Positions 33,100 to 33,301 of a DNA stretch of 64,000 bases are shown piece after piece. The stretch lies in the IMG/VR virus record IMGVR_UViG_3300048625_000299, positions 1 through 64,000 of that record. One strand, written 5' to 3'. The translations under genes were made by a program, and so were the position numbers. This stretch comes from a virus. Numbering within the stretch: the first letter of the stretch is position 1; each line of letters starts with the position of its first letter. The notes under the pieces were generated by a model. That model was given only the letters and a program-made list of their open reading frames with translations, did no database searches and was not told where the DNA came from.

Positions 33100-33301
33100 G
33101 GATCCATGCAGCAACATAAAATGCATTGAAAGCCTCGTGTTGGTGGTGCAAGTCCACCCTCCCTCACTAAGGGCACTTTATGGAGTGACCCGCCATACTA
33201 CTAAAGGATCGCAACCTGTAGTAATATCCAACGTATGGTATTGTGCCCTTAGTGAGGGAGTAGCTCAAGTAGTAGAGCAGAGTAAAAAGCGGATCCTGTT
33301 G
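33100..33301 (+). tRNA. Circularly permuted tRNA, anticodon UGA, element R11
   Basis: GGATCC/GGATCC closing stem, CAGCA, TGTTG. 3' part: ATTGAAA loop, GCCTC, T-arm GGTGG/CCACC with loop TGCAAGT (G at position 55), 3' acceptor CTCCCTC (33159). A long linker follows, then 5' acceptor GAGGGAG (33254), D-arm GCTC/GAGC, A, GAG. The two acceptor strands lie in an 18-bp inverted repeat (CTCCCTCACTAAGGGCAC). Joining GAG to GC rebuilds anticodon stem GAGGC/GCCTC. Confidence 0.7.

What the first reader, a model, noticed from the sequence alone, without database searches (positions are those of the whole stretch)
33100..33301. Permuted tRNA whose anticodon stem is rebuilt only after joining
The 5' part ends ...GAGC-A-GAG and the 3' part begins GC-ATTGAAA-GCCTC. 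Alone, the 3' part cannot form an anticodon stem; joined they give GAGGC/GCCTC. The acceptor strands sit in an 18-bp inverted repeat with an 87-base linker. The T-loop has G at position 55, normally invariant U.
Basis: seen in the sequence. Interest (0 to 1): 0.72.

Follow-up and report, generated by a model that had tools for sequence, protein, structure and literature searches.

The report
Phage tRNA mimic on Ro60 handle
The "permuted tRNA" is one of many small phage RNAs that copy a whole tRNA or just one of its parts and hang it on a shared stem next to the gene for a Ro60-like RNA-binding protein; they probably act as protein-bound tRNA look-alikes rather than as tRNAs used to make protein.

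Summary
Joined, 33254-33282 plus 33123-33166 folds as a perfect cloverleaf with anticodon UGA, and homologues keep the split anticodon stem with compensatory changes. But it is not a lone permuted tRNA gene. It is flanked by a 7-bp stem (AGGATCC/GGATCCT) with a fixed motif (NUNCAGCAA, A-rich run, GU). Ten such units lie in the window and hundreds in other phages: 350 found against 0 in controls; 140 of 148 blind hits have complementary free positions. They carry whole tRNAs, bare anticodon stem-loops, tRNAs lacking an arm, or an acceptor stem alone; most permuted ones have the acceptor closed by 2-10 nt and cannot be charged. The units are linked to a phage Ro60 gene (38008-39441): 75 of 80 Ro60 loci found by protein carry units on the gene strand, usually ending just before its start codon. 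Felix O1, P100 and a mycobacteriophage have them too. Best reading: Y-RNA-like tRNA mimics held by phage Ro60, perhaps decoys. Joining is neither needed nor excluded.

The parts
33099..33297 (+). whole target unit (handle strand 1 to handle strand 2)
33099..33105 (+). 5' strand of handle stem, AGGATCC
   Evidence: pairs exactly with 33291-33297; covaries across units
33106..33114 (+). conserved handle motif NUNCAGCAA (ATGCAGCAA)
   Evidence: alignment A2 columns
33123..33166 (+). 3' tRNA part: 2 bp of anticodon stem, loop AUUGAAA, anticodon 3' strand, T-arm, acceptor 3' strand
33159..33260 (+). acceptor stem extended to an 18-bp stem with a structured 66-nt loop
   Evidence: homologues keep an extended stem with other sequences
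33254..33282 (+). 5' tRNA part: acceptor 5' strand, D-arm, GAG of anticodon stem
33291..33297 (+). 3' strand of handle stem, GGATCCT, followed by GU
25373..25439 (+). unit: anticodon-hairpin type (loop CTTTTAA)
25693..25810 (+). unit: permuted tRNA-like with variable arm, acceptor closed by GCTT
26354..26413 (+). acceptor-stem-only RNA ending GCCA with the handle as its apical hairpin
   Evidence: read from sequence
26419..26478 (+). unit: anticodon-hairpin type
27769..27826 (+). unit: short hairpin type (TCTAGCGACAAAA class)
30338..30453 (+). unit: permuted tRNA-Leu(UAG)-like, split at 26/27, acceptor closed by TTGGTC
30556..30653 (+). unit: D-arm, anticodon arm (UCU) and T-arm with the handle in place of the acceptor stem
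30764..30876 (+). tRNA-Asp(GUC)-like with the handle hairpin inserted between D and anticodon arms
   Evidence: Rfam tRNA 50.3 bits across the insert
30885..30986 (+). unit: degenerate tRNA-like
37690..37923 (+). unit with a ~200-nt structured cargo, upstream of the Ro60 gene
37933..37985 (+). last unit; ends 22 nt before the Ro60 start codon, just ahead of the ribosome-binding site
38008..39441 (+). Ro60-like (TROVE-vWA; DUF2828+DUF7788) protein gene

Best explanation
The element is a noncoding RNA of a Ro60 ribonucleoprotein encoded by a phage. Its 5' and 3' ends pair in a 'handle' stem that the phage Ro60 protein probably binds; the rest is a tRNA look-alike, here a cloverleaf with its acceptor closed and its anticodon stem interrupted by the handle. 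It is cut out of the tRNA operon as a linear RNA by processing of the flanking tRNAs, so no joining is needed. The phage makes at least ten, each displaying a whole tRNA or one part of it. I think they act mainly as protein-bound decoys for enzymes that attack or handle tRNAs (anticodon nucleases are the first suspects), and that the last unit, just ahead of the Ro60 ribosome-binding site, lets Ro60 regulate its own synthesis. Shown: the stem with covariation, the fixed motif, the tRNA mimicry, the sealed acceptor in most permuted members, the genetic linkage, and the Ro60 fold of the predicted protein. Inferred: binding by Ro60, processing, decoy function, autoregulation.
For: Handle: blind motif scan gives 160 hits; 148 have NNATCCTGT within 300 nt downstream and 140 of these have both free positions complementary (1 in 16 expected), against 21 of 160 upstream. 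350 units against 0 in reversed or complemented sequence. Cargo: 112 of 189 non-redundant short units have a >=5-bp hairpin with a 7-nt loop (shuffles mean 17, max 27), 83 with U33 and R37 (mean 2.4, max 8), mostly UUU, UGU, GGA, UCU, UGA, GCA, GUU. The linker between acceptor strands is 2-10 nt in 59 of 82 permuted tRNA-like units. Protein: Foldseek 1yvr E 3.6e-6 and 2nvo E 8.7e-6; VIA Z 17.4 to 9kop and 16.0 to 9l5y, Ro60 of Thermus phage phiLo. Linkage: 80 loci picked by protein alone hold 282 units on the gene strand, 0 on the other, 0 in controls; 75 of 80 loci have one, 66 of 73 within 250 nt upstream; 31 of 47 end 13-24 nt before the start codon. 12 of 14 unit-bearing records over 70 kb have the gene. 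Cultured phages. R starts 5-6 nt after a tRNA CCA in 149 of 343.
Against: No binding, expression or processing data for this phage. The handle does not match the Rfam YrlA model, so it is not the known bacterial Ro-binding motif. Some units have NCCA after the acceptor strand (17 of 82) and some handle-bearing tRNAs keep a normal acceptor end with CCA, which fits a chargeable or spliced tRNA better. Seven of 20 unit-bearing records lacked the gene, though most of these are short fragments. Campylobacter phage F357 has the gene but no unit was found. The decoy role rests on mimicry alone.
Confidence: 0.72

Rival explanations
1. A tiny intron: the handle plus A-rich arms is removed and the exons are joined. 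In the permuted order this gives a circle that is then cut at the acceptor stem to give a working tRNA.
For: Joined target, 30338, 25693 and 30764 all score as tRNAs. The split anticodon stem is exactly 5 bp and is rebuilt with compensatory changes. The phage encodes an Rnl2-type ligase.
Against: Same handle on cargoes that make no tRNA when joined. Acceptor closed by 2-10 nt in most permuted members. Linkers of variable length without a fixed splice site. A recurring tRNA-like gene with the handle inserted carries a bulged T-stem (read). No RtcB in the record.
Confidence: 0.12
2. Same Ro60 RNA family, but the tRNA-like part is a tether that brings a tRNA-binding enzyme (exonuclease, tRNA-modifying enzyme, repair ligase) to Ro60, not a decoy that inhibits an enemy.
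For: Y RNA tethers Rsr to PNPase in Deinococcus (reported in PMC12282133 and PMC8058203). The phage has an RNA ligase.
Against: The many different anticodons in separate small units fit a set of baits better than one tether; not tested.
Confidence: 0.3
3. Decayed tandem tRNA copies that by chance left a 3' half before a 5' half.
For: The unit lies in a 13-kb array of 40 tRNAs.
Against: Covarying stems and the conserved target type in nine phages.
Confidence: 0.01

Closest known systems
Bacterial Y RNAs, YrlA (Rfam RF02553; Chen et al. 2014, from memory and as cited in PMC12282133)
   Same: RNA partner of a Ro60/Rsr protein encoded next to it; ends pair in a stem; tRNA-like part in permuted order with closed acceptor. 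The T-acceptor-D part of the Rumpelstiltskin unit aligns to YrlA (21.4 bits, below the 69-bit cut-off).
   Different: Different stem motif (NUNCAGCAA and A-rich run; the known Ro site, from memory, differs); up to ten or more units per phage; full anticodon arms; units that show only an anticodon loop or an acceptor stem. No Rfam YrlA match for the target.
Dictyostelium Class I RNAs (Rfam RF01414; PMC7919456)
   Same: 42-65 nt, terminal stem free in sequence but covarying, 11-nt motif beside the 5' strand (consensus CCUUACAGCAA in RF01414), start AAG and end CUGU with C pairing to G; phage units have AG...CUGU and NUNCAGCAA. RF01414 aligns full length in register to two Felix O1 units and one Rumpelstiltskin unit (18.9-20.1 bits).
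   Different: Below the 41.5-bit cut-off; eukaryotic, own promoters; known direct partner is an RRM protein; described as unique to dictyostelids.
Permuted tRNA genes of algae and Thermofilum (from memory)
   Same: 3' half precedes 5' half with a linker between the acceptor strands.
   Different: Those are spliced at a bulge-helix-bulge motif and matured; here the junction carries a Ro60-linked stem and most acceptors are sealed.
Abundant noncoding RNAs of Listeria phage CKA15 (PMC12282133)
   Same: The authors suggested Y RNAs next to an Rsr-like gene. Three units of the present kind lie directly before that gene in its relative P100.
   Different: The one mapped region, 26,236-26,727, is a different stretch; coordinates of the two other regions were not found in the text.

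Membership tests
Permuted (spliced) tRNA gene | 3' half precedes 5' half and the two form a cloverleaf | tested here: met
Permuted (spliced) tRNA gene | joined, CCA-tailed mature tRNA is made | not testable with these tools
   needs RNA data; acceptor sealed by 2-10 nt in 59 of 82 relatives argues against it
Permuted (spliced) tRNA gene | bulge-helix-bulge at the junction | not tested
   no formal BHB search was run; by eye the outer stem has a 1x1 mismatch, not two 3-nt bulges
Ro60/TROVE protein | TROVE helical domain plus vWA domain | tested here: met
   fold match over 396 residues, Z 17.4; Foldseek 1yvr, 2nvo; model pLDDT 75.9
Bacterial Y RNA | encoded beside a Ro60 gene | tested here: met
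Bacterial Y RNA | 5' and 3' ends pair in a stem; tRNA-like module | tested here: met
Bacterial Y RNA | binds Ro60 | not testable with these tools
   needs a binding assay
YrlA (Rfam RF02553) | covariance-model match at gathering score | tested here: not met
   no match in the target; 21.4 of 69 bits in Rumpelstiltskin
Dictyostelium Class I RNA (RF01414) | covariance-model match at gathering score | tested here: not met
   18.9-20.1 of 41.5 bits
Dictyostelium Class I RNA (RF01414) | terminal stem, CAGCAA motif inside the 5' strand, CUGU end | tested here: met
   alignment A2 against the description in PMC7919456; the conserved U is offset by one position

The most novel reading that the evidence does not exclude
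Phages carry a modular, previously unrecognised class of Ro60 RNAs that displays dissected tRNA parts (anticodon loops, acceptor stems, elbows, whole permuted tRNAs) as decoys against tRNA-targeting defences, and the same Ro60-binding handle is shared with the abundant Class I RNAs of social amoebae, which would then be a eukaryotic branch of Y RNAs.
Probability: 0.25. Interest if true: 0.93.

Novelty: new variant of a known kind. Interest (0 to 1): 0.85.

Why it matters
It would turn a curiosity (one permuted tRNA) into a widespread RNA-protein system found from mycobacteriophages to Felix O1, Listeria P100 and cyanophages, many with genomes long in the databases. It offers a testable reason why tRNA-rich phages also carry Ro60: a display rack of tRNA parts. 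Since phages and bacteria fight over tRNAs with anticodon nucleases, single units can be deleted and tested one anticodon at a time. It also suggests what Dictyostelium Class I RNAs may bind, an open question.

Tried and rejected
(1) Decayed tRNA pair: rejected by covariation and by the target type being kept in nine phages. (2) Group I or other known ribozyme flanks: no Rfam match to the unit at any useful score; a Twister-sister hit of 13.8 bits and CRISPR-DR27 of 24.3 bits are below cut-off and chance-like. (3) Mini-intron: held first because of the handle inside tRNA-Asp, then lowered when anticodon-only, acceptor-only and armless cargoes appeared. (4) Direct BLAST of the target in known phages: no match; an exact 25-nt pattern: none. 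(5) Pattern TGCATTGAAAGCCTC: 65 hits, only L008, L240 and L257 in real handle context, the rest unrelated by appearance. (6) The first regex missed Listeria P100; a looser one found three units before its Ro60 gene. (7) I tried to match these to the highly transcribed region of CKA15; the published coordinates are a different stretch, so no expression is claimed. (8) The 100% pairing is by selection, since units were chosen for a full stem; the unbiased figure is. (9) Rnl1 and RtcB were not found in the 235-kb record; one search had no positive control and says little.

Full report
What is there. The window is part of a 234,864-base virus record, a tailed phage with T4-like head and replication genes whose nearest major head protein in cultured phages is 74% identical, from Stenotrophomonas phage DLP_6. 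It has an array of 40 tRNAs called by ARAGORN between 24.9 and 37.6 kb, all on one strand. The finding lies between tRNA-Ile and tRNA-Leu. The 18-bp repeat is exact and the unit folds far better than shuffles.

A repeat search showed that the sequence before the 3' part, TTTTAGGATCCATGCAGCAA, and the sequence after the 5' part, AAAAAGCGGATCCTGTTG, recur through the array. They pair with each other (AGGATCC/GGATCCT), and each recurring copy has its own matching stem: AGAATAG/CTATTCT, AGGATAC/GTATCCT, AGGTTCA/TGAACCT, AGGATGA/TCATCCT and others. Ten units were found in the window. I call the stem plus its motif the handle.

The handle is real and widespread. Of 160 exact matches, 148 have NNATCCTGT within 300 nt downstream, and in 140 of those the two free positions are both complementary, where 1 in 16 is expected; the upstream side gives 21 of 160. 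A scan asking for the full stem found 350 units and none in reversed or complemented sequence. In an alignment of 54 short units the stem is 7 bp with two freely covarying positions, then a 1x1 mismatch, then U-R and mostly U-A; CAGCAA on one strand and the A-rich run on the other are nearly fixed. The 100% pairing there is by selection; the blind test is the fair one.

What the handle carries. Short units (40-62 nt between strands) are largely anticodon stem-loops: of 189 non-redundant ones, 112 have a hairpin of at least 5 bp with a 7-nt loop (shuffles: mean 17, max 27) and 83 have U33 and a purine at 37 (mean 2.4, max 8). The commonest anticodons are UUU (19), UGU (17), GGA (8), UCU (6), UGA (5), GCA (5). 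Longer units are tRNA-like: full cloverleaves with the handle between D and anticodon arms, inside the anticodon stem or in the variable region; tRNAs without an anticodon arm; D-anticodon-T without an acceptor stem. In 82 with both acceptor strands found, the linker is 10 nt or less in 59, which leaves no room for a CCA end; 17 of the 82 have NCCA after the 3' strand. The handle also occurs as a closed hairpin, in tRNA-like genes between D and anticodon arms and in acceptor-stem-only RNAs ending in GCCA. A whole tRNA and every part of it are thus hung on one handle, so making a joined tRNA cannot be the purpose of the handle in general.

The target type. Homologues of the target with the same anticodon-stem split occur in eight other loci (L134, L139, L154/L008, L155, L060, L066, L240, L257), with linkers of about 20 to 111 nt closed by an extended acceptor stem of changing sequence. 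Related types change the split stem in step: GAG/CUC, CCG/CGG (L086), CAU/AUG (L094), ACG/CGU (L037, L052). The anticodon varies (UGA, UUC, and a loop AAUGAAA without U33), again unlike a tRNA kept for decoding. In the Leu-type units the leader GACCA can pair with the acceptor loop UUGGUC, and L099 has GACUA with UUAGUC (read).

The protein partner. The gene at 38008-39441 (PHROG 850 'RNA-binding protein', Pfam DUF2828 and DUF7788) folds as a Ro60: Foldseek hits Ro autoantigen 1yvr (E 3.6e-6) and Deinococcus Rsr 2nvo (E 8.7e-6), and VIA-align gives Z 17.4 and 16.0 over about 395 residues to TROVE structures, one of them from Thermus phage phiLo. It was in 51 of the 119 stretches picked by the RNA motif alone. 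Conversely, 80 loci picked by the protein alone hold 282 units on the gene strand, none on the other and none in controls; 75 of 80 have at least one and 66 of 73 have one ending within 250 nt upstream. In 31 of 47 the last unit ends 13-24 nt before the start codon, next to the ribosome-binding site, as in the window (37933-37985). That placement suggests, but does not show, autoregulation. Of 14 unit-bearing records over 70 kb, 12 encode the protein.

Cultured phages. The protein is in 682 phage records. Units with a free stem sequence but the same motif lie beside it in Synechococcus phage BUCT-ZZ01, Salmonella phage Felix O1 (four, one a permuted tRNA with a 4-nt acceptor loop), Vibrio phage VH7D, Klebsiella phage phi1_175008, Bacillus phage FADO, mycobacteriophage Rumpelstiltskin (permuted tRNA-Asn-like) and three in tandem before gp165 of Listeria phage P100. 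Aeromonas phage Aeh1 has tRNA genes with the handle inserted, one of them annotated as a 122-nt tRNA-Val. Reversed and complemented controls were empty.

How it most likely works. The units begin 5-6 nt after a tRNA CCA in 149 of 343 cases and in the window the target ends just before the next tRNA, so ordinary tRNA processing would free it as a linear RNA with paired ends (inference). Ro60 would bind the handle (inference from linkage, the fixed motif and the leader unit). The display of anticodon loops and sealed tRNAs suggests decoys for tRNA-targeting enzymes; competitive inhibition of an anticodon nuclease was raised for YrlA in PMC7790460, and PMC7824862 notes TROVE proteins in a few jumbo phages as a platform with a tRNA-like partner. 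A tether role, as for Y RNA and PNPase, is the main functional rival.

Comparison with the known. It works like a bacterial Y RNA, whose YrlA form is a known tRNA mimic, but fails the YrlA covariance model, so I do not file it there. An unplanned match was to Dictyostelium Class I RNAs: 42-65 nt, covarying terminal stem, 11-nt motif, AAG start and CUGU end (PMC7919456); their model aligns full length and in register to three phage units at about half its cut-off. That is a lead, not membership. The literature held here describes phage Ro proteins and suspects phage Y RNAs but I found no account of this handle or of the dissected tRNA cargoes; most subscription papers are not held.

Verdict. 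Observation confirmed; interpretation partly supported. Joining is neither needed nor excluded (the phage has an Rnl2-type ligase).

Noticed in passing
window 35770-35890 and 35990-36070: Two more permuted tRNA-like arrangements (acceptors CCCAAGC/GCTTGGG and CTGCGTC/GACGCAG, the second with GCCA) without the handle motif in their flanks; possibly another kind of permuted tRNA.
   Followed up: no
window 31935-32609: Release-factor gene (RF-1 domain) with an in-frame TGA at 32040 and the same frame open afterwards; perhaps a release factor controlled by UGA read-through, or a sequence error.
   Followed up: partly
window 27155-27763 and 28727-29389: Two similar genes, the second matching a homing-endonuclease PHROG, each follow a tRNA and share a repeat at the tRNA 3' end (27156-27207 and 28664-28715).
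   Followed up: no
L132:21755-22580, L282:6533-6655: Units resemble Dictyostelium Class I RNAs (RF01414) full length and in register, below the family cut-off.
   Followed up: partly
window 30330-30450 and L099:5480 (-): Leader GACCA can pair with the acceptor loop UUGGUC in Leu-type units; L099 has GACUA with UUAGUC, a possible compensatory change.
   Followed up: partly
L131:24060-24314 (Aeromonas phage Aeh1): Two tRNA genes carry the handle hairpin; one is annotated as a 122-nt tRNA-Val(CAC), so its annotation is probably wrong.
   Followed up: partly
window 24989-25125 and 34485-34578: Long perfect or near-perfect inverted repeats enclosing 60-90 nt between tRNAs, of unknown role.
   Followed up: no
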